Shown here: in pieces, positions 3,618 to 50,163 of the stretch | Layout of the letters: every line of letters begins with the position of its first letter | How positions within the stretch are numbered: the first letter of the stretch is position 1 | From: Histomonas meleagridis | Lineage: Eukaryota > Parabasalia > Tritrichomonadida > Dientamoebidae | DNA length: 64,000 bases | Reading direction: 5' to 3' | NCBI GenBank assembly: GCA_020186115.1 | Contig: WSYJ01000092.1 | Location: 656,001 to 720,000 of the forward strand | Position numbers and translations under genes: made by a program | Notes under the pieces: model-generated | What the model saw: only the letters and a program-made list of their open reading frames with translations | Told to the model about the DNA's origin: nothing | Databases searched by the model: none

Positions 3618-5813
3618 ATGGAAACAATACCCGAACTTAAAACAAACTCTTCTGAGTTAACAACTGAAAGAGAAAAGACAATAGCACTACAAAATACATT
3701 ATTCAACTTAACAAGCGATATTTTTGAACAAACTAAAAATTCATTATTCCAAAACATCAATCCAAAAACTTTAATTCAAAACATTTTATTTGCTGCAGAA
3801 TATCGTCCAAAATCAATACCTTTATACATTAATATGTGTAAATTAATTCCAAACTCGAAAGAAATATTATGAAAGACATTATCAAATTCAACTTTTCTAA
3901 ATATTGAACAAAAATATTTTTTATATCAATGTTTAAAACATTGCATATTTAATGAAGAAGAAGCATTTAAAGCAATTTCCAAAACTGATATTAAAGATCA
4001 AGTAACATATTCCTTATTTAAAGATATTATCAATAAATATATAACAAATGAAAAAACATTAAAAACATTTGAAACTATTAACACAATTAATTTAAATTCC
4101 GAATTATTCGAACAATATATTATAGATGATAATGTTGATGAATTTAAGCAATTATTTAATACTATTAATATTGATCCAAACCTTCGAATCACGCCAACAA
4201 TACAAAACGGATCTCATTTTTTACGTTCGAGGCCAACAATTCTTCAATTTTCTGCATTTTATGGATCCATAAATTGTTTTAAATTTTTACTTGAAAATAA
4301 TGCTAATTTAGATTGCGTTGATGAAAATAAAAGAACTTTAGCACAATTCGCTATTGCTGGTGGTAATATAGAAATTATAAATATCTGTAAAAATAAAAAA
4401 TGTGATTTTTCAAATACATTAAAAATAGCTGTAAGATTTCATCGGAATGATCTTATTAAAAATAATATAATAAATGATAATAATGATAATGATGAATCTT
4501 TTCCTATTTTTCATCATTGTGTTGTATCAAATAATGTTGAAATGATATTAAAATATGTTAATTTGGGTATAAATGTTAATCAATATGATTCAAGTGGTAA
4601 GGCGCCTATTCATATTTCTGCTTTATATAATTCTATTGATGCAATGAAAATATTAATTAATTTAAAAAATATTATTATTAACATTAAAACGAATGATACA
4701 TATCAACAAACTGCTTTACATATAGCTACAAAAAATGGGTATAAAGAAATAGTTAAACTTTTATTAAAAAACGAAATGATAAATCTTCGAGAAAGTGATA
4801 AAAAAGGAATTTTTTATATTAATTTTTTATGGCAATTCATTATGCTGCTGAAAATGGAAACATAAAAATTATTAAACTTATGTTAAATAATGGTAATGTG
4901 ACTGTAAATTCAAGAACTGATTACGGTGCTGCACCACTTCATATAGCTATAAAAGAAAATCAATTTGAAACTGTTAAATTTCTTTTATCTAGTGAAGCAA
5001 TTGATAAAAATGCTAAAACTCTTTCGGACGAAACTTTTTTGCATACATCTGCAAAGAATAATAATGTTGAAATTATGGAATATTTAATCTCTAAAGGTAT
5101 TAATGAAATAAACTCACATGACATTGATGGGATTTTCTTTTTTTATATTTTGGACACCTTTACATTATGCTACACAATATCAAAACGTTGATATTATTTC
5201 GTTTTTATTGTCTCAAGAAAAAATTGATATAAACTCTAAAAATAAATCTGGAATTTAATCATTTCTTTTTGGACATCGCTTCATTTAGCAGCTAAAATTG
5301 GAAATTGTGAAATAGTTAAAATGTTTATTTCAAATCCTAATTTAAATATTAATGAAATGAATGATGGAAATTGGACTGCTTTACATTTGGCTTGTAAATC
5401 AGGAAATATCGATGTGGTAAAACTACTTCTCTCTGTTGATGGTATTGATATAAATCTAAAAGATAAAGCTGGAATTTTTTGTTTTTTCATTGGACACCTT
5501 TACATAATGCTGTGAAATATCAAAATCATGACGTTATTAAAATGCTGTTAGAACGAAAAGAAATTAATGTTAATGCTGCAACTAATTGTGGTTGGGTTCC
5601 TCTTCATATTGCTTGTTTAAATCATGATTTCGAAACCGAAAACATGCTAAAAAATATAGAAGGAATAATAATTGATGCAAAGGATAACGAAGGATTTTAT
5701 TTTTGTTTTTTAGAACTCCAAATGATTTGCTTAATATTCCGTTCTTTGGAAGTCAGTTTATGTTTTCTGCTCAAAGACCTATTGAAGAAAATGTTTATTT
5801 CAACGGATTATGA
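3618..5813 (+). CDS. Ankyrin-repeat/DUF3447 protein, interrupted gene (ankyrin locus 1)
   Basis: One frame runs from 3618 to about 4808 with a single in-frame TGA at 3870-3872. It encodes the N-terminal domain of trichomonad DUF3447/ankyrin proteins (LQFSAFYGSINCFKFLLEN, then an IAGGNIEIINICKN block), parallel to the intact first exons at 41.1 and 22.1 kb. Ankyrin repeats follow to the TGA at 5811, but the frame changes five times. Each change falls just after the Gly of a D-x-x-G linker, where a T-rich insert of 17 or 19 nt separates it from an x-T-P-L-H motif. Without these inserts the repeats join into canonical ankyrin linkers. Other repeats in the array (at about 4600, 4710, 4920 and 5365) have no insert. 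The TGA suggests a pseudogene or an assembly error; the preserved repeat coding argues for function. The C-terminus reads about RTPNDLLN...NGL. Confidence 0.7.
4809..5711 (+). repeat. Five short T-rich inserts at one fixed point of the ankyrin repeat
   Basis: Inserts lie at 4809-4825, 5132-5150, 5253-5269, 5474-5490 and 5695-5711 (17, 19, 17, 17 and 17 nt). Four begin ATTT and all are runs of T broken by A, G or C, for example ATTTTTTGTTTTTTCAT. Each sits between the Gly codon of D-x-x-G and the codon (TGG in three cases) before Thr-Pro-Leu-His. Each shifts the frame, and its removal restores the expected spacing. None begins GT or ends AG. Confidence 0.75.
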
Positions 5814-19466: not shown

Positions 19467-22107
19467 TTATTTTCTTTTAACCATCTTGGCGATTTCTTTA
19501 TAACCTATTTTATTTGCGATTTGATAAGCTGTTTGAAATAAAATTAATAAACGCCAAAACCAAATTTGAAATTTCAAATTTTTATAATAAATTTCAAATA
19601 AAAGGGAAAAATATTTTTAATATTAATATTAATTTTTTTACATTTAAGAAGTAATTTCACAATATTAGCATAACCTCTTGCACATGCAACCATCAAAGCT
19701 GAGTTAAACACTTTTAATAAATTCCAAATATTTATATGAAACATCGAAATATTTCAACAAACATTAAACAAAATAATAAAACATTAACAGCGTTATAATT
19801 AATACCTTTTTGTTTAAGTAATAATTTGACCACTTCCATATCATTATTATAAACAGCATATATAAGTGATGTATTAAATGATTTAAATGATTTCCAAATA
19901 TTATTTCGAAATATTAAACCCACAAAACATATAATAAATAAAACAAATATATATGTACAGCATTAATGTTTATTCCTTTTTGTTGAAGAAGTAATTTAAC
20001 TACTTCAAGATGACCTTTTTGAGATGCCCACATTAATGATGTCCAAAATACTTTAAACAATTTCCAAATATTATTTCGAAATTTCATTTTATTAAAATAA
20101 ATTTCAAACAAAACAAATAAATAATTTTTGCATTAACATCAATCTTTTTTTGTTCAAGTAAAAATTGTACAAGTTCGATTTGATTATTTAATGATGCTAA
20201 CATAAGTAATGTACAAAACAAATCAAATGATTTCCAAATTATATTATCAAACAAAAAATCATGAAAAGAAACACAAAACAAAATGAAAAAAACGTCTTGA
20301 AAATTAACATCAACCCCATGTTCGATAATGTATTTCACAATTTCTATATGGTTATTATAATATGCATGGAATAATGCTGAATCTTATCATTAAAATAAAT
20401 TTCAAATTTTAACTTAAAACATAAATTACATAAAATAAATTTCATCTCTGGCACTTAAGTCAATGCCATGTTGAACAAGTAATTTAACAATATCAAAATA
20501 ACCTTTTTTACAAGGCACATCAATAACAGTTTCACAAAAAACAAAACAATAAACCTTGTTATATGAAAACAAAAATCACTTATTTCATTAATATTAATAT
20601 GTTTATCAATTAGAAACTGAACAGCCTTTATTTTATTATAAGCGCAAGCAAAGAATAGTGGTGTATAATGTTTTCTAAACAAATTCCAAATCATTAATAA
20701 TAACATGAAAAAAATTCAATTAATATGAAACATACGAAACAAACATTTTTCGCTGAATAATCAAAATTCTTATGATTAAGAAGTAACTCAATAATATTAT
20801 CATAACCTTTTTGAGCTGCTATTGAAAAAGCAGTATCAAATATTTATGTAAGACACCAAAAATAAGCAAAAAACATAAAATTATTAAAAAATTAACTTGA
20901 AACAAACACAAAAAATAGTTTCAGAATTAATATCAACTGAATTTTCATTTAATAAATAATTAACAAGTTCCATATTATTCATATATGTAGAAGCTAAAAT
21001 TCCCTTTGGGAATATTTTTAAATATTTTATTATGAATAAATTACCTTTTTTTGCCATTATGTTAATACAAACATCATTCACAAGTATATACCCTTCATCT
21101 AAAAGGAATCCTAAAATTTCATAGTTATCATTAAGCAAACATTCATCTATTAAATCCTTTGTATTCGGTCTAAATTTTGTTTTATTCTCATAAAAATATT
21201 TAAAGACATCGTTTCGATGGAACTCAATAGCAACTATAAGTGCATTATCGAAAGATGAATGATTTTGTTCACACAAATGAATGATTTCATGGTTTCCGCC
21301 TGCCACAGCGTAATTTCCTGTGTCAGAAACTTTTGCATTATTCATTAATAAATATTTAAAACAATTAATAGACCCAAAATAAGCAGCAAAATTAACTAAT
21401 GTCTTTCTCTTTGGGCCATATATTTCATTAACATATGAACATCGCTCATACATTGATGATTCAATGAGTTGATCATAATTAAAATCTTGTTGCGATGTAA
21501 TCCCTTGAAGTGCTTCAATGTCATCATTTCGTAAAACTTTCGATAATTCATTTGGATTAACACCTTCGGATATTAAGCGCTTATGAGTTTCAAAGTTTTC
21601 TTTAGAATATTCATCGAATTTGGATAAAAAGGAACCGGTAAACTTTGAGTCTTGTTGTATTTTTTGATTTTCTTCAATAGTTCGTAAGTGTCCGAAGTAA
21701 TATGTTTGTTTGCCTATCACAAATTTCTCATCAATAATTTTGTTTTCAAGCAACTTTTCAAGAAGATAATTAGATTCATCTGAACAAGAATCAAGAAGAA
21801 TTTGAGCAAATATTTTGAGAATATTACTTTGGTTTTCTTTGATTGATCGTTCTTGAGATTCAATCGCTTGCAAAAAACGAATACATATATCATCGTTTTT
21901 GCTATTTGCTATGAAATATGAATATGTTAAATAACAAATGATATGATTGAAGGAAATTTGTATATTGGGTTGATAATATTTCATTATTGTTAGAGCAATT
22001 TCTTGTATGTTATCGCTTTGTAAATCAAAAATTGCCTCTTCAATTTTTTGAAGATATTCTAATTCGGATAACTCTTGTTTCTCAGTGGAATTTTTCTCTT
22101 GTTCCAT
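19467..22107 (-). CDS. Ankyrin-repeat/DUF3447 protein, gene interrupted by regular inserts (ankyrin locus 2)
   Basis: The first segment (22107 to about 20920) is an intact ORF encoding the DUF3447-type N-terminal region (KTLVNFAAYFGSINCFKYLL, then AVAGGNHEIIHLCEQNH and AIEFHRNDVFKYF) and one ankyrin repeat. Nine more ankyrin segments follow on the same strand, for example TSLMWASQKGHLEVVKLLL and TSLIYAVYNNDMEVVKLLL. They end in QTAYQIANKIGYKEIAKMVK and a TAA at 19467. Each segment is about 28 codons and is separated from the next by an AT-rich insert that breaks the frame or carries stops. Every ankyrin segment keeps its consensus residues, which argues against simple decay. Ankyrin proteins of this family are presumed protein-binding scaffolds. 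The start follows ATCAA. Confidence 0.72.
19533..20922 (-). repeat. Nine phase-locked inserts between ankyrin repeats, mostly 86 nt
   Basis: Measured from the residue after the Asn of D-I-N-A to the next conserved Thr codon, the inserts are 20835-20922, 20665-20750, 20531-20583, 20381-20449, 20213-20299, 20043-20128, 19873-19958, 19703-19788 and 19533-19618. Their lengths are 88, 86, 53, 69, 87, 86, 86, 86 and 86 nt. The last five end exactly 170 nt apart. Most begin with a T-rich tract, commonly after GTT or ATT. Most carry TGGAA(A/T)T near the 3' end on the coding strand, with TGG exactly 24 nt before coding resumes in seven of nine. Confidence 0.8.
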
Positions 22108-37546: not shown

Positions 37547-38133
37547 TAGTTGTATGATAACTTTTTCAATTTATATCAGATTATTTTGGATTCAATATTT
37601 GAGTTAAATTTGACAGGAAAAAATCATTTTTTTCTTTCTCAGTTTCAAAGTTTACAAAATAATTATTATCATTTTCTTATCACAAACAAGTATCAGGTCA
37701 TTTTGTAGTACTTTAATTTTAATCTTCAACCTTTTTCCAATGTAATCTTTGGAATTTTTAAAGTATTTTTATAATTTTGATAACAAAGCCATCCCGTTTA
37801 AGCAATTTTAGAGCATATTTCAATTAACTAAGTTTGCATATCAAGAAAAAACCAGTTTAAAAAACCCGTGCAATGCATTCAAAAAGTTGATTTTTTCATA
37901 GCGTTATCAAAAAATTGATGGAATAACGTATTGAAAAAATTATCGATAATTTGCTGTAACAAAAAACAGATTCCTTTTATAATAATGATTAATGAAATAA
38001 GTTGATACATATTAAATATTTTGAAATTTGATATTGAGTTTTTATTAATAATATTTTTCGCTAGTTATAGGAAAAAGTTGTTGGAAGTATCCAACAAAGA
38101 CTACATAAAATGTAATCAATAATTTTCCCTATT
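37547..38133. other. Intergenic, no feature seen
   Basis: AT-rich spacer between the VPS9 gene and the end of ankyrin locus 3. Confidence 0.55.
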
Positions 38134-41080
38134 TATAAAAGTAAATCTATCACTTCTGTTCTGCCATTCATAGAGGCAAGTAATATTGGAAATTCATTTA
38201 CAAAGAAATAATTCCAAAAAAAAAATTGAAACATATTTTTCTCAAAATAAACTTTCAATAATAAAAACAAATATTTGTATAAAATTCATCTATATCTTTT
38301 TGTTCTAGAAGTACTTTAACGATTTGAGCATAACCTTTTTCACATGCCCATAACAATGCAGTTCTTTATCATAAAAATAAACATCGAATAATATTATGAA
38401 ATGTTAAAAATTTAAAATTTAACATTAAAAATAATGAATTAATATCTGTTGCATTAACATTAATACCATCTTGTTTAAGAAGTATTTTAACTATTTCTGT
38501 AGTACCAATTATAGAAGCCCAAATTAATGGAGTCCGATATTATTTTAAAAAAAATTCCAAATATATTATTGATATATTAAATCATAAAATTCAACATGAA
38601 ATTTATATAATAAATATCATATGTATTAATATTTTTTATTCCTAATGATAGAATCAATTCAACAATTTTCGAACGATCATTTGAAATTGCATAAAATAAA
38701 ACTGCTGTATAAAAATTTAAATAAATTTTAATATTTTTGTATGAACAATAAATAAAATTTATTAATTTCATTTATATTAGGATCATTATCTTGCTGTTGA
38801 AGTATCATTTTCACAATATCTATATGATTATTAATTGTTGCTTTAATTATTGCTGACCCAAATAATTTCATTATATTCCAAAAATTATAACAAAACATTA
38901 AATAATTAAAAATTAACATTAAACAAAATATTTAAATATTACATGTATTTATATCAATTCCTTTCTGTTTAAGAAGTATTTTTACACAAATAACACTTCC
39001 ATATTCAGATGCTATCATAAGTGCTGTATTCTATAATTTGAATTATTTCCAAATATTTTTTTGGAACATTAAATTTTTTATATAAATTTTAAGCCCATTA
39101 AATAAACATCTTTCTTATTGATATCAATTCCCTTTTGTTTAAGAAATAAATCAACTAATTCAATGTTGTTATTTTTTGATGCTAACATAAGTGGTGTTTG
39201 ATATTATTCAAATAAATTCCAAATATTTTGTTAAAACAACACTTCCACTTACATTTATATTAAATTCTTTTTGTTCTATTAAAGTTTTTACTATTTCATT
39301 TTTACTATATTGAGAAGCCCAAATTAATAATATATTAAATAATATAAATAAATTGTATACAATATTTAGAAACTTTAAGTTATTTAAATAAACTTTAAAT
39401 ATAATTTTAAAACATTTTCTACTTCATTATCTATTTCTTCATTATCTAATAAAAGATTAAAAATTTCTTTAAATTCTTTTTGATATGAAATCGTAAGTGC
39501 TGTTTCATTTATTATAATGAAAAACTAAATTGTCTAATAAAACATTATAAAAATTTATATAAACATTAAACAATCACAAAAAATATTCTCAATATTAATA
39601 TCAAGATTTTTATTTTCAAGTAATAATTTTACAATTTCCATATTACCATTTCTACATGCAAAAATTAATGCTGTATCAAATCATTTAAACAAATGCCAAA
39701 TATAATTTTTAAACATTCTTTTATAAAAACAAACATTATAAAATACAAAAATAACATTTTTAACATTTAAATCAATTTTTTTATTCATTAAGAGCATTTT
39801 TATTACATCAATTTGTTGATATTTCGATGCATTTATTAACGCTGTATTATAAATTACAAATAAACTCCAAAAGTATAAAATAAATATTAAATAAGAAAAC
39901 AAAACTTCAAATAAAAATATGAAATATCTTTTGCATTTATATCAATATTTTTATGTTGAAGTAAATATTTAATGAGTTCAAAGTTTAAAGGTGTTATTGA
40001 ATATGGTAAAATATTTATTGGAATTCTATCATCAGATTTTATTAAATGTTTAAAAACATAAAAATTACCATATAATACTGAAGTGATAATAAGTTTCCGA
40101 TTTGGTTTAAGTCCTTCACCTTCTAAAAATGATAAAATTTCATAATTACTATATTGTATACATTTAACACCATAAGTTGTTAATTCCATTTGTGTTTTTT
40201 TCTTTTTTTCTTTATTCGCATTTTGTTTATTTATAGAATTATCATAAAGATAATGAAAAATATCATTTCGATGAAATTCAATTGCTGTTTCGAATGATTC
40301 TTTAAATGTCGAATGATTTTGTTCACATAAATGAATGATTTCAAGGTTTCCACCTGCAATAGCATATTTGCCTGTTGCTCTTATATTAGAACCATTTAAT
40401 AATAAAAATTTAAAACATTTAATTGATCCAAAAAACGCCGCATAATCAATTAATGTTAAACTTTCTTCAGCAATAAAAGAATATATATCTAAAAATGATT
40501 GTCCTATGTTTTGATTAAAATCAAAATTCCTTCGTGTTGATATTTTTTGGAGTTTTTCGATTTCATCATTTCGAATTATCTCTGTAATTTGTAAAGAAGA
40601 ATTCAAATTTGAATTTTCATTTTCTTTTGATGAAAAAATAGTTTTTGTTTCACTCGAATTTATTTGATTTATTATATAAGGAAAATGAGATTGGATTTTA
40701 TTAAAAAGTAGATTTTTATTGATTTTTGTCATTTTCGCAAAAATATAGAGAGATTCATTCTTATTTAAATATAGAAGAAATTGAATAAATACTGTTAACG
40801 CTTTTGGTTCTTTAGAATTGATTTGATTTTCCATTTCTTCTATTTTATTTAAATAATCAAAATATAAACTTACATCTTTTCTTTGAGAAAGAAATGATGC
40901 ATAGATGCAATGACAAAGAACAACATTAAAAGAATAAGGTATATTTCTATCATAATTTTTCATTGTTAGATGTACTGCTTCAAGTAAATTTTTTTGTTCC
41001 AATCCGAATATTGTCTGGAGCAGTTGTAGTAAACTTTGCATATCTAATAGTTTTGGTAAAAAATTGTTTTCTTGCTGCAT
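38134..41080 (-). CDS. Ankyrin-repeat/DUF3447 protein, gene interrupted by regular inserts (ankyrin locus 3)
   Basis: The first segment (41080 to about 39930) is an intact ORF with the DUF3447-type region (TLIDYAAFFGSIKCFKFLLLN, AIAGGNLEIIHLCEQNH, AIEFHRNDIFHYLYDN) and a first ankyrin repeat. It is clearly paralogous to the 22107 gene. Eleven further ankyrin segments follow, for example TALINASKYQQIDVIKMLL, TALIFACRNGNMEIVKLLL and TALLWACEKGYAQIVKVLL. The last reads FPILLASMNGRTEVIDLLL and stops at TAA at 38134. All are separated by AT-rich inserts that break the frame. The segments differ strongly from one another but keep the ankyrin consensus. The start ATG has no clear Inr. Confidence 0.72.
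38193..39931 (-). repeat. Eleven phase-locked inserts between ankyrin repeats, mostly 86-88 nt
   Basis: On the same definition as locus 2 the inserts are 39846-39931, 39675-39761, 39504-39590, 39334-39419, 39198-39249, 39028-39113, 38857-38943, 38709-38766, 38534-38621, 38363-38449 and 38193-38284. Their lengths are 86, 87, 87, 86, 52, 86, 87, 58, 88, 87 and 92 nt. Most begin with a T-rich tract after A-K-D or its equivalent and carry TTTGGAATTTATTT-like sequence near the end. TGG lies exactly 24 nt before coding resumes in six of eleven. Several contain in-frame TAA or TAG. Confidence 0.8.
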
Positions 41081-46542: not shown

Positions 46543-48081
46543 TTATTGTATATGCTGTATATCGCAGTGCGCCGAACCCTCCTTCTCCATTTTTGCATCT
46601 TCGTCCTTTACGACTATGTTTAGTAAACCTTCTTCGTTTACATCAAAATGTATTATAATTTCAGGTTTTATTCTTCCTTCTAATCCACCGTGTAAATATT
46701 CCCAAAGCAACACGTTATCACATGTGTACTTGTTATCACCCATAAACACTCTAATGCGTGCATTATATTGTTGTTGCTTTTCTGTTGTAACTTTGATTTC
46801 TTTTGATACCGGAATTTTTGTGTTCTTATCAAACACACTGAACATTTCACACCCTTTAATTTCTATTCCAATTTCATGTGTTAATACGTTTTCTATCTTG
46901 ACGATTTCCCCATGACTACTTGCTATGATTGCAGCGCCCTTAACAACTGTTAATGATGGATCAACATCTAATGCAATGATATCATTCGTGAAGAATTTCC
47001 CTAATAAATCTTTGACATATGGAATTCGTGATGATCCGCCAACTAGAAGAACAATGTCGACCTCCGACTTTTCGACATTATTTTCACTAAGAATCGACTT
47101 AACGGGCTCCAGTGTGCGCTGGAAGAGATCGTGGTTGATCTCCTCGAATTTGGAGCGTGTAAGCTTGTAGCTGAATTCAGGCTTGTGTTGGAAACATGGA
47201 CGGATGGTTGCTTTTTGAGTTCGGCTAAAAGAAAGTGTAATTTTCGCTGATTCACATTGCGACTTGAGTTGAAATTGACAATGCTGATCTTTAATTGGGT
47301 CATAGCCATACTCTATTTGGAAACGCTTTCTAACATGTTCAAAAAGATTATTATCAATATCTTGACCGCCTAGATTTTGGTCACCTTTCGTACCTTTGAC
47401 AACAAACTTTTTCCTAAAAACATCGAGGAGTGATATATCAAGTGTTCCACCACCAAAATCAAAAACAAGAATTCTCTTAGCACTTTCAAAAGCGTTTTTA
47501 AAACTATAAGCAACTGCTGCAGCAGTGGGCTCTTCTATTAAAGAAATACATTCAAATCCTGCATTTTTACCAGCTTCTTTGGTTGCTCTACGTTGATTAT
47601 CATCAAAATCGGCAGGAATAGTAATAACTGCTTTCGTAACCGATTTATTTAAATGGGTATCTTCTGCAACCAGCTTTAATTCATTTAAAATATATGAAGA
47701 TATATCAATTGGGGAATAATACTTTGTTCCATTTTGGCCTTTTACTTTATAAAGCAGTCCTCCATCTTCTCCTTTAACAACTGTGAACGGCCACGACCTC
47801 ATTTTGCTTTGAACTTGAGGATCATCAAAATTCCTACCAATCATACGTTTAGAATCATAAACCAATTGCATTTTTGTTTGAGGATTTTGGAGCATTTCAT
47901 TGTCTGCTTGTTCTCCGGTAATAATTTGATCATCTATAAAGCCAACAACAGAGGGAATTGATGCATTTCCATGATTACTTTTAATAACTTCTGGTTCACC
48001 ACTTAAAGAACATACAGCAACTGAACTGAATGTAGTTCCAAGATCAATTCCGATTATTGGCTCTTTTTGACTCCGCCTCAT
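46543..48081 (-). CDS. Divergent Hsp70-family protein lacking the C-terminal lid
   Basis: A 512-residue protein. ATPase motifs are IGIDLGTTFSSVAV at about 10-23, VFDFGGGTLDISLL near 205, and VLLVGGSSRIPYVKDLL near 340. A recognisable beta-sandwich substrate-binding domain follows (ENVLTHEIGIEI... to NEEGLLNIVVKDEDAK). The chain then ends within 15 residues, so the helical lid and EEVD-type tail of a normal 640-residue Hsp70 are missing. There is no organelle presequence or ER signal. The segment around residues 280-320 is unusually basic and aromatic. It probably acts in the cytosol or nucleus; without a lid, substrate cycling would be fast or altered. Confidence 0.88.
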   Translation of the reverse strand: MRRSQKEPIIGIDLGTTFSSVAVCSLSGEPEVIKSNHGNASIPSVVGFIDDQIITGEQADNEMLQNPQTKMQLVYDSKRMIGRNFDDPQVQSKMRSWPFTVVKGEDGGLLYKVKGQNGTKYYSPIDISSYILNELKLVAEDTHLNKSVTKAVITIPADFDDNQRRATKEAGKNAGFECISLIEEPTAAAVAYSFKNAFESAKRILVFDFGGGTLDISLLDVFRKKFVVKGTKGDQNLGGQDIDNNLFEHVRKRFQIEYGYDPIKDQHCQFQLKSQCESAKITLSFSRTQKATIRPCFQHKPEFSYKLTRSKFEEINHDLFQRTLEPVKSILSENNVEKSEVDIVLLVGGSSRIPYVKDLLGKFFTNDIIALDVDPSLTVVKGAAIIASSHGEIVKIENVLTHEIGIEIKGCEMFSVFDKNTKIPVSKEIKVTTEKQQQYNARIRVFMGDNKYTCDNVLLWEYLHGGLEGRIKPEIIIHFDVNEEGLLNIVVKDEDAKMEKEGSAHCDIQHIQ

Positions 48082-48291
48082 TAAGCCCAATATTTGCTAA
48101 AAAATGCCAGAAATAATCGGAATTGTACAATTGAAAAAGTTATTGTTGAAATTTAGCGCCATTGAAGAATGCGGAGCAACATTTACAACATCTCTAACAC
48201 CACTAATCTCATAATTAATAAAATTTTTTATTTACAAAAACCATATATTGACTATTATTGCTTTGTTTCCCTTTCATTATACAATTAAATA

Positions 48292-48323: not shown

Positions 48324-48970
48324 CGAAAATTGAGTAAAATTTACAACAAAGAAATTTGAGACATTTTATTTTTGGCAAAAAATTGAGTTAAAATGAAAAC
48401 AGCCATTCGATCGTAAATCAAACCGTTACTTTTGTGTGGAAAATTATTCAAAAAAATATTTTCACTTCATTTTATTTTTGTCATGACGTTCTTCTTGTTT
48501 CGAAACTCGAAAACAGTTAGTTGGGGCTCGAATCCCAAATCTCAGTTTGAGATCGAGAACGTTCATGTTTGATAATTTCCAATAATTTCAAAAAATGTCG
48601 TTTTTAGGAACTCAAAGTGCGACAGTAATTAGCTACAGGAGATTCACAATTTTGCGTCAAAGCAGCGATTATCATGAAATTGTTGAATTTAAAAAAAAAT
48701 TTTATCATTATAAAAATTCTATTTTTGGCTTTTTACATATGAGAATCTAAAATTATCATTTGTTGAGCTATATTCATTAATAAAAATGATTTATCTAATT
48801 TTTAAATTTTTTGTAGTAATTTTTTCATATTTACATCCAATTGTTGCGAAAGATTTAAATAATGATAACCTTAAATTTGCATTAATTATTAAAAATATTA
48901 TAATAAATTTTATTTTCTCTCATTTTTTTTATTGATTTTTTCATATTTGGCGCCAAAATCACTAACTTTA

Positions 48971-50163
48971 ATGATATTCGACGAAGAACCAAAAAGCTTT
49001 ATTCAGGAAATGGAAGAAAAACTGAATAAACTCAAGAAAATCAAATCCAATCGCCACGATACCTACGCGCCAAAAGATATTCAACCCGTTTTGGATATTT
49101 TAACTGAATCGGAATTGCCTCGTGGTTCATTAACTCGAATTCAAAAAGCCACTGGCATTCCTGAATCAACACTCAGTTATTGGCACCAGAAAAGGAATGA
49201 AAATAAAAACTGGTTTCCAAATTGTGAAGGGCATCCAAATCGTAGGGTATTTTCGAAAGAAACCGAAGCGAGTATGGCAGAAGAAATTATACAACAAGCC
49301 GACTCTGGTTTTGGACCTACGACATTATCACTTAAGATGAAAGCTCTCAATGAGTTTTCATTAATTGGTAATTTAAAATATGAACGATTTTGCGCGTCTA
49401 CTACATTTATAAGCGATTTCATGAAGCGCAATAAACTATCATATCGGAAACCACATGCAGAAAGGCGAACAAATATCAATAATGAATATGTTCAAACTTT
49501 TCAAAATAAGCTTAAATTAATATTTCAGAAATATCCGAAAAAAAAATTTTCAACATGGATGAAACATGTTGGAAAATTTCGAACACCCCAGCAAAAGTAT
49601 TACACAAGATTGGAGTGCCAACGGTTAAGATCCAATCAATCCGAAACGAGAAATTAACTTTGACGGCCATCGCAACAATTAATGCAAATGGGTCAAAGTT
49701 GCCGCTTTGGATTATTGCCAAAGGCAAAACGAATAGGTCCGAGAAGAAATTTGGGAAATCAAACGAAAATTTGATTTTTACCCATACTGAACGTGGATGG
49801 GCTAATGATGATATTCTGATTTTCTATTTAGAATGAATTCATAATAAAGCCAATGGTGAACCATGTGCCTTAGTTTGGGACATTTTTCCTGCTCATCAAG
49901 CAGAAAATGTTAAGTTGAAAGCTCAAGAGCTTCAAATTGAGCTATTATTTGTTCCAGCCGGGGGAACATCAAAATATCAACCTCTTGATGTTAAGGTATT
50001 TGGGGAACTTAAATCAAGAGCTCGAAAAAAATTTGAGCATTTGGCTATTATAAACCAAACAAGAAACATAACATATCAAGAATCGATCGAAATTCTTGTT
50101 GAATCATGGCTCTATATTTCTCAAGAAAATATCGAGGAATCTTGGAAATTAATTAAACAATAA
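48971..50163 (+). pseudogene. Pogo-superfamily DDE transposase, one frameshift and one in-frame TGA
   Basis: The ATG at 48971 lies just after an Inr-type TCACT (48959-48963). The N-terminal half holds a helix-turn-helix region (GSLTRIQKATGIPESTLSYWHQ) and a CENP-B-type second DNA-binding region (FSKETEASMAEEIIQQADSGFGPTTLSLKMK). In the catalytic core, NMDETCW has the first Asp, VWDIFPAHQAENVKL the second and QPLDVKVFGELK the third. There are 35 residues between the second and third, giving DD35D. The frame shifts in an A9 tract near 49540, and TGA at 49834-49836 lies between the first and second Asp. All three acidic residues survive. Closely related intact copies could mobilise it. Confidence 0.85.

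What the first reader, a model, noticed from the sequence alone, without database searches (positions are those of the whole stretch)
19533..20922. Ankyrin array split by inserts of constant length at one fixed position
In locus 2, nine inserts separate ankyrin segments of about 28 codons. Five are exactly 86 nt (others 88, 87, 69, 53), and five successive insert ends are exactly 170 nt apart. Each insert shifts the frame or carries stops, yet every ankyrin segment keeps its consensus and the segments differ strongly from one another. Random decay would not keep the length and the coding parts. A removed sequence (non-canonical intron), an introner-like element spread through the array, or an ancient scar multiplied with the repeat unit would each explain it. 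The 5' and 3' ends do not fit GT...AG or the trichomonad ACTAACACACAG 3' motif, which I did not find.
Basis: partly seen in the sequence, partly recalled or inferred. Interest (0 to 1): 0.88.

Follow-up and report, generated by a model that had tools for sequence, protein, structure and literature searches.

The report
Codons spaced apart by 17-letter inserts
In a poultry parasite, DNA for ankyrin repeat proteins is broken between repeats by up to four 17-letter inserts in a row with single codons standing between them, which points to an unknown way of cutting tiny pieces out of the message.

Summary
The window is from Histomonas meleagridis. Each "86-nt insert" is typically four 17-nt inserts separated by single codons: GCT AAA GAT [17] AAT [17] GAT [17] GGA [17] AAT ACA. 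The codons left over read A-K-D-N-D-G-N-T, the ankyrin consensus.

In 238 distinct 89-nt linkers none of the 7x238 codons is a stop. A model with no preset insert length, fitted to 322 linkers, puts 1179 of 1208 inserts at exactly 17 nt. Genome-wide, a pattern finds 3428 matches against 0 for its control; I extrapolate to roughly 37,000 inserts.

Ankyrin segments show purifying selection only in their own frame (ratio 0.37-0.47 against 1.08-1.56 shifted; inserts 0.75-1.40), though raw divergence is no lower than in the inserts. The inserts follow R-TTT...ATTT, not GT-AG (1 of 1179).

Best explanation: ultra-short introns removed by a process that holds length at 17 nt. Removal itself is inferred; I had no transcript data.

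The parts
20884..22107 (-). Locus A: ORF of 407 aa, DUF3447 plus degenerate ankyrin repeats; its stop lies inside the first linker
   Evidence: Pfam PF11929 and Ank families
19467..20925 (-). Locus A ankyrin array: 9 segments in changing frames and 9 interrupted linkers (4,4,2,3,4,4,4,4,4 inserts = 33), ending in a stop
   Evidence: 8 linkers with 29 inserts parsed; the ninth (19621-19533, 4 inserts) by eye
20043..20131 (-). Locus A linker 6, worked example (89 nt): codons 20131-20123 (A K I), insert 20122-20106, codon 20105-20103 (E), insert 20102-20086, codon 20085-20083 (E), insert 20082-20066, codon 20065-20063 (G), insert 20062-20046, codon 20045-20043 (W)
20835..20925 (-). Locus A linker 1, four inserts (17,19,17,17)
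20665..20753 (-). Locus A linker 2, four 17-nt inserts
20531..20586 (-). Locus A linker 3, two inserts (17,18); the least clean parse
20381..20452 (-). Locus A linker 4, three 17-nt inserts
20213..20302 (-). Locus A linker 5, four inserts (18,17,17,17)
19873..19961 (-). Locus A linker 7, four 17-nt inserts
19703..19791 (-). Locus A linker 8, four 17-nt inserts
19533..19621 (-). Locus A linker 9, four 17-nt inserts
   Evidence: sequence, parsed by eye
39887..41080 (-). Locus B: ORF of 397 aa, DUF3447 plus ankyrin; stop inside the first linker
38133..39934 (-). Locus B ankyrin array: 11 interrupted linkers (4,4,4,4,2,4,4,3,4,4,4 inserts = 41)
   Evidence: 9 linkers with 34 inserts parsed; linkers 38775-38709 (3, one of them about 15 nt) and 38624-38534 (4, one of 19 nt) by eye
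3618..5813 (+). Locus C: ankyrin gene resembling A and B (not Pfam-tested) in which several repeats have no insert and five have one, each just after the Gly codon of the turn
4809..4825 (+). Locus C insert, 17 nt, after GGA
5132..5150 (+). Locus C insert, 19 nt, after GGG
5253..5269 (+). Locus C insert, 17 nt, after GGA
5474..5490 (+). Locus C insert, 17 nt, after GGA
5695..5711 (+). Locus C insert, 17 nt, after GGA (starts T, not R; shifting it by one base also fits)
   Evidence: parsed by eye

Best explanation
The linkers between ankyrin repeats in this gene family carry ultra-short introns of 17 nt, in phase 0, up to four (rarely five) in a row, with single-codon exons of 3 nt between them. 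They follow R-TTT-N9-ATTT and are removed from the RNA one by one by a process that keeps their length at 17, so the protein is an ordinary ankyrin array. They reached their number in two ways: elements were added at successive codon boundaries, starting after the turn glycine and moving upstream, and whole interrupted 170-nt units were then duplicated in tandem and between genes. Shown here: the inserts, their length, positions, frame logic and frame-specific selection on the ankyrin segments. Inferred: that removal happens, that it happens at the RNA level, and the order of gain. Unknown: the machine. An adapted spliceosome is possible, but no canonical signal is present.
For: (1) Taking out 4 x 17 nt leaves no stop in 238 x 7 codons; the residues are A/K/(D,N)/(N,K,D,E)/(D,N,Y,E)/G(195 of 238)/(N,K,W,E,D), the ankyrin turn. 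One 68-nt removal leaves stops in at least 13 of 238 at each of 22 positions tried; the best two-insert model leaves 3. (2) A model fitted from random starts with a flat length prior finds 17 nt: 1179 of 1208 inserts. Of 14 starts, 5 ended at 17 and had the 5 best likelihoods; the next optimum (14 nt) is far worse. (3) 278 of 332 linkers have length 21 + 17n (21, 38, 55, 72, 89, 106). Slot use is nested: 4321 in 248, 321 in 17, 21 in 2, 1 in 3, none in 3 of 281 seven-codon linkers; 8 break the order. (4) Isolated codons avoid stops: at D1 41 TAT and 0 TAA/TAG against 11.2 expected. (5) Selection: dN/dS-like 0.37 (single-change codons) or 0.45-0.47 (all changes) in the exon frame, 1.08-1.56 in shifted frames, 0.75-1.40 in inserts. 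(6) Few units lost: 316 single spacings against 6 roughly double ones. (7) 3428 genome-wide matches against 0 control; of 100 listed, 99 have the spacing of a 17-nt insert although 8-38 nt were allowed. (8) Insert positions 2-3 and 15-17 differ at 0.09-0.12 per site, positions 5-13 at 0.18 on average.
Against: No transcript or peptide was seen. Raw divergence of ankyrin segments is not lower than that of inserts (0.167 against 0.155; closest pairs 0.106 against 0.071). The 3' end is TTT, not AG (5 of 1179 end in AG). The host has a U6 with ACAGAGA and a U2 with GTAGTA, for which the inserts offer no obvious partner. No such insert was found outside ankyrin arrays in 336 kb (1 candidate against 2 for the reversed motif; inside arrays 55 against 22). 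The single-codon exons show no purifying selection beyond stop avoidance and residue type (ratio 1.1-1.7). A stop-free codon start is not unique: 12 of 76 starts in the insert region have none. Locus C has an in-frame TGA at 3870-3872, so some members may be dead. Units share descent and gene conversion is likely, so counts are not independent.
Confidence: 0.67

Rival explanations
1. The arrays are not expressed as long proteins. The gene product is the ~400-aa DUF3447 part, and the ankyrin arrays downstream are a 170-bp satellite-like or pseudogene tail copied with its inserts.
For: The ~400-aa ORFs of A and B end in the first linker. NCBI's H. meleagridis models (P0017, P0018) and several metagenome relatives also end near or before there. 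Raw divergence is about equal in segments and inserts. 170-bp tandem units resemble satellites. Locus C has an in-frame TGA.
Against: Synonymous change is favoured only in the exon frame, between units that already share the inserts. Codons isolated by 17 nt on each side avoid stops. Few units are missing or frameshifted (6 against 316). Arrays A and B end in a stop at the end of a last, short repeat segment.
Confidence: 0.14
2. The mRNA keeps the inserts and ribosomes skip 17 nt after certain codons (programmed bypassing).
For: Fixed length and codon-boundary position; inserts lie in many places of one frame.
Against: Bypassing as known (recalled) re-pairs the tRNA with a matching landing codon. 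Here the codon before the insert equals its last three bases in only 21 of 1208. No RNA structure beyond shuffles in the 4 linkers folded (z -0.81 to 0.71). The 33 and 41 inserts of loci A and B would each need a skip.
Confidence: 0.06
3. One larger non-canonical intron per linker (68 nt, or 77 nt including the three single codons) is removed in one step; the apparent single codons are intronic.
For: Simpler for a splicing machine; a 77-nt removal would stay in frame; the inner codons show no purifying selection.
Against: A 68-nt block leaves stops in at least 13 of 238. The inner codons read as turn residues (0.87, 0.62 and 1.00 hydrophilic at 27, 47, 67, though some A-rich positions of the inserts score about as high as the first two), GG is the most conserved part of the insert region, and TAA/TAG are avoided. 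Repeats with a single insert have it right after the same Gly.
Confidence: 0.09

Closest known systems
Type B introns of Trichomonas vaginalis (23-25 nt; PMC12316389, passages read)
   Same: Trichomonad, uniformly short, T-rich middle
   Different: [quoted passage not shown] here 17 nt, no GT-AG, no such motif, dozens per array, single codons between
Shortest spliceosomal introns: Stentor 15 nt, Bigelowiella 18 nt (as cited in a passage of PMC12316389)
   Same: Similar length; removal of so short an intron is possible
   Different: Recalled to be GT-AG; not known to me in runs with one-codon exons
Micro-exons, e.g. a 1-nt exon in Fusarium CYP621A (PMC12940212, abstract and outline)
   Same: Shows that exons below 4 nt can be spliced in; also in a Gly codon
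   Different: One tiny exon; here series of 3-nt exons between 17-nt inserts, in thousands of units by extrapolation
Introners (recalled)
   Same: Many similar intron-like copies in one genome
   Different: Introners insert in many unrelated genes and carry splice sites; here confined, in what I sampled, to ankyrin linkers and spread with the repeat unit
byp elements and T4 gene 60 bypassing (recalled; start of the PMC11194080 abstract in a search listing)
   Same: Short non-coding inserts within reading frames
   Different: Matching take-off and landing codons not found here
HAC1/XBP1 unconventional splicing (recalled)
   Same: Short non-GT-AG introns removed outside the spliceosome
   Different: Those have stem-loops with fixed cleavage motifs; no unusual folding in the four linkers tested, and the cleavage motif was not searched for

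Membership tests
Spliceosomal GT-AG introns | GT at 5' and AG at 3' end | tested here: not met
   1 of 1179 17-nt inserts has both; 181 start GT, 5 end AG
Spliceosomal GT-AG introns | Removed from mRNA | not testable with these tools
   No transcript data; inferred from frame and selection
Trichomonad introns | Fused branch/3' motif ACTAACACACAG | tested here: not met
   3 in the genome against 2 control; GTATGT-N(8-38)-ACTAAC 31 against 236 control
Spliceosomal introns (host capacity) | Spliceosomal snRNAs present | tested here: met
   U2 80.5 bits, over cut-off; U6 43.7 bits, just under its cut-off of 44. U1 not found, but the control genomes were silent too
Programmed translational bypassing | Take-off and landing codons match | tested here: not met
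   21 of 1208
Introners | Copies in many unrelated genes | tested here: inconclusive
   1 non-ankyrin candidate against 2 for control in 336 kb centred on ankyrin loci; the rest of the genome was not tested for this
Ankyrin repeat proteins | 33-residue repeat with D-x-D-G-x-T-[AP]-L turn | tested here: met
   Pfam Ank_2/Ank_4/Ank and DUF3447 on the ORFs of A and B; linker codons
Pseudogene array | No selection on the coding frame | tested here: not met
   Frame-specific ratio 0.37-0.47 against 1.08-1.56
   0.167 against 0.155 per site

The most novel reading that the evidence does not exclude
A dedicated RNA-processing system outside the known spliceosome signals recognises and removes 17-nt elements by length, at tens of thousands of places. 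Because every exon between them is one whole codon, any codon can be skipped without losing frame, so one gene could make many variants of the ankyrin turn, a surface that can bind partners.
Probability: 0.25. Interest if true: 0.97.

Novelty: categorically new. Interest (0 to 1): 0.93.

Why it matters
If the inserts are removed, these would be among the shortest introns known, in series with one-codon exons, without GT-AG, in a genome reported to have few introns (573, at most one per gene; PMC8529796, passages). That would change the gene models and proteome of this parasite, press on the lower bound for what an intron can be, and give an unusually clean case of intron gain in steps (0, 1, 2, 3, 4 inserts). 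If they are not removed, frame-specific selection around codons set 20 nt apart would need another new explanation.

Tried and rejected
One 68-nt insert and a two-insert model of 51 + 17 nt (3 of 238 with stops) were my earlier readings; the four-insert model replaced both (0 of 238). Lag-17 similarity inside the insert was expected and absent; the peaks are at 20 and 40 = 17 + 3, with a smaller one at 13. RNA structure: nothing in 4 linkers. Column coupling was strongest between neighbouring bases of codons (87-89, 67-68); base pairing as such was not tested. A first scan for frame joins outside ankyrin arrays was uninformative because neighbouring ORFs overlap; the motif-based repeat gave 1 against 2 control. 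Two protein searches listed no long, insert-free H. meleagridis product; they see only proteins of 0.55-1.75 times the query length, and only the 7999 candidates sharing most words were scored.

On re-checking I recounted selection with all changes, not only codons with one change: the in-frame ratio rises from 0.37 to 0.45-0.47, shifted frames stay above 1.

Papers: ten searches (two returned none) listed no title or abstract start that reports such inserts. Beyond listings I saw passages of PMC12316389, PMC8529796, PMC10063853 and PMC12428144, and abstract and outline of PMC12940212. Most subscription papers are not in that library.

Limits: the sampled loci are 40 places I chose from the 150 listed DUF3447 hits (of 1695 candidates) plus 8 loci returned with that search (5 of these duplicates, dropped), with the window; not a random draw. 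Linkers were taken only where both neighbouring segments were recognised and at most 140 nt apart. Ten duplicates of 332 linkers were merged before the model fit. The genome-wide total is extrapolated.

Full report
WHERE IT IS. The window is contig C55:656001-720000 of a 43.28-Mb genome in 121 contigs. Contig C120 is 3,384,422 bp, the size of the largest contig of the published virulent-strain genome of Histomonas meleagridis (43.4 Mb, 187 contigs, 28.66% GC; PMC8529796, passages). A database protein labelled H. meleagridis sits on a contig of that length. That paper reports 573 introns and at most one per gene, and the word ankyrin does not occur in its main text.

The stated numbers hold: nine gaps, five of 86 nt, five successive starts at 170-nt steps. 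The ankyrin segments sit in changing frames, and the array ends in a stop after the last segment. The same design recurs in locus B (41080-38133).

HOW WIDE IT IS. A profile made from 17 segments of A and B (27-29 codons, linkers left out but for the N3 and sometimes the A30 codon) was run over 44 sequences, 320,597 bases. It found 332 linkers: 247 are 89 nt from N29 to T4, and 236 unit spacings are 170 nt. Of the 44, 43 hold at least one insert; L005 holds none. Among the 150 DUF3447 domain hits that were scored (of 1695 candidates) two have a stop inside the domain.

THE KEY CLUE. The 85 linkers that are not 89 nt are 72 (21), 90 (15), 69 (7), 92 (7), 75 (6), 21, 38, 55, 86 and 95 (3 each), 83 (2) and 12 single lengths, among them 106. 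Lengths 21 + 17n thus make up 278 of 332, with 21 nt (7 codons) being an uninterrupted linker. Locus C on the plus strand shows the simplest state: several repeats have no insert, and five have one of 17 or 19 nt, right after the Gly codon of the D-x-x-G-x-T-P-L turn. The common 89-nt linker then reads GCT AAA GAT [ATTTATTTGTTTTATTT] AAT [ATTTATTTTAATAATTT] GAT [ATTTCAAAATAATATTT] GGA [AATTATTTAAATTATTT] AAT ACA: one codon every 20 nt, spelling A K D N D G N T.

TESTS OF THE FOUR-INSERT READING. (a) Stops: 0 of 238 linkers have any in the 7 codons, against 3 of 238 for the best two-insert model and at least 13 of 238 for one 68-nt block. Stop-free starts alone are not unique: 12 of 76 triplet starts at positions 10-85 have none. 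(b) Residues fit the ankyrin turn at each slot. (c) Isolated codons avoid stops: at D1, 41 TAT and no TAA/TAG where 11.2 were expected; at N33, 13 TAT and none. Most other triplet positions tested show no such gap; position 53 (15 against 28.6) and, more weakly, 13 and 33 also have fewer than expected. (d) A model that knows only 'codons without stops, and inserts of any length 6-70 with unknown ends' was fitted from random starts. Its best solution has 1208 inserts, 1179 of 17 nt, with ends RTTT and ATTT. Ten further starts, with a minimum length of 10, reached the same optimum three times; worse optima had 14 nt or mixed lengths. The linkers read backwards gave far lower likelihoods and 93 unparsable linkers of 322, although 17 was also the commonest length in three of five backward runs. 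(e) Divergence between related units is high at codons D1 and N3 and low at the insert ends: 0.09-0.12 at insert positions 2-3 and 15-17, 0.18 on average at 5-13. (f) Self-similarity within the linker peaks at lags 20 and 40.

SELECTION. Between 78 disjoint pairs of related units, codons with one change give a dN/dS-like ratio of 0.37 in frame, 1.08 and 1.47 out of frame, and 0.95-1.29 for pseudo-codons in the inserts (0.36 with 79 pairs). Counting all changes by path averaging, the in-frame ratio is 0.47 (78 pairs), 0.46 (51 closer pairs) and 0.45 (36 closest); shifted frames give 1.28-1.56, inserts 0.75-1.40. Both members of a pair already carry the inserts, so selection acted on the protein while the inserts were there. 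Against this stands the raw rate: 0.167 differences per site in ankyrin segments and 0.155 in inserts, 0.106 and 0.071 in the closest pairs. The inserts are thus as conserved per site as the coding parts, which fits constraint on a recognised element, base-composition limits or gene conversion as well as it fits slow neutral change. The single codons change freely among turn residues (0.261 per site; ratio 1.1-1.7), as expected for a variable loop or relaxed constraint; this is not evidence of purifying selection on them. Six spacings suggest a missing unit, against 316 regular ones.

GENOME-WIDE. TTTGG-N(8-38)-ACAGCACTT occurs 3428 times (1758 + 1670), its reversed control 0 times. Of 100 places listed, 99 have the spacing of a 17-nt insert and one that of 18. 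In my sample 114 of 328 linkers match that pattern, and each linker holds 3.75 inserts (1208/322), so the genome would hold about 9,900 linkers and 37,000 inserts, if the sample is representative.

WHAT REMOVES THEM. I infer removal from RNA. Against ordinary splicing: 1 of 1179 inserts is GT-AG; the T. vaginalis motifs are near or below control frequency; the U6 candidate carries ACAGAGA and U2 GTAGTA, so the known machine looks standard. Rfam U1 was not found, but the controls did not ring either. Against bypassing: no matched codons (21 of 1208). Against structure-guided cleavage: no unusual folding in four linkers. What is conserved is length (1179 of 1208 exactly 17), mostly a purine followed by TTT at the start, and ATTT at the end. 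Uniform length is also a feature of the ~25-nt introns of T. vaginalis (PMC12316389, passage), so a spliceosome working at its lower size limit with loose ends remains possible. One-base exons have precedent (PMC12940212, abstract).

HOW IT GREW. Slot use is nested from the glycine upstream: in 281 seven-codon linkers, 248 have all four slots, 17 the last three, 2 the last two, 3 the last one, 3 none, and 8 break the order. Stepwise gain in the 3'-to-5' direction, or loss in the other, fits; the direction is inferred. Triplet changes in linker length seem to come from codons gained or lost between inserts, as read by eye in examples; by the fit 281 linkers have 7 codons and 41 have 5, 6, 8 or 9.

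VERDICT. The feature is real, recurs across the genome and, as far as my searches reach, is undescribed. It matches no known class in the features I could test. Removal is the most likely reading but is unproven.

Noticed in passing
window 3870-3872 (+): In-frame TGA in the N-terminal part of locus C; that gene may be decaying although its array is otherwise regular.
   Followed up: partly
window 46543-48090 (-): HSP70-like ORF matching Pfam positions 1-493 of 599; I saw no C-terminal part by eye in the ~640 nt downstream, so it looks truncated.
   Followed up: partly
window 48932-49657 (+): ORF with a Tc5 transposase DNA-binding domain.
   Followed up: no
G000:C36:377228-377335 (L052); G000:C40:1173955-1174137 (L054): Candidate U6 (43.7 bits, ACAGAGA box) and U2 (80.5 bits, GTAGTA) snRNA genes of this genome.
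   Followed up: partly
proteins P0001, P0002, P0007, P0013, P0014, P0016 (metagenome) and P0012, P0019 (Tritrichomonas foetus): Several predicted relatives end at or near an ankyrin linker, often in residues of T-rich codons (e.g. ...DINFKDV...LKDIKGVLLYYLSNSI), so the inserts may exist beyond this strain or species; no DNA was available to check.
   Followed up: partly
proteins P0017, P0018: NCBI models of H. meleagridis DUF3447 proteins, named 'cask-interacting protein (caskin) 1,2', are 428 and 421 aa and stop near or before the array, so annotation of this family is probably cut short.
   Followed up: no
L023 (-), about 2040-2436: Five ankyrin segments in one frame without 17-nt inserts, in a locus that also has interrupted repeats.
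   Followed up: no
89-nt linkers, codons D32, N33, D1, G2, N3: The single codons differ more between related units (0.261 per site) than the ankyrin segments (0.167) or the inserts (0.155), with N3 the most variable: a hint of a diversifying loop.
   Followed up: partly
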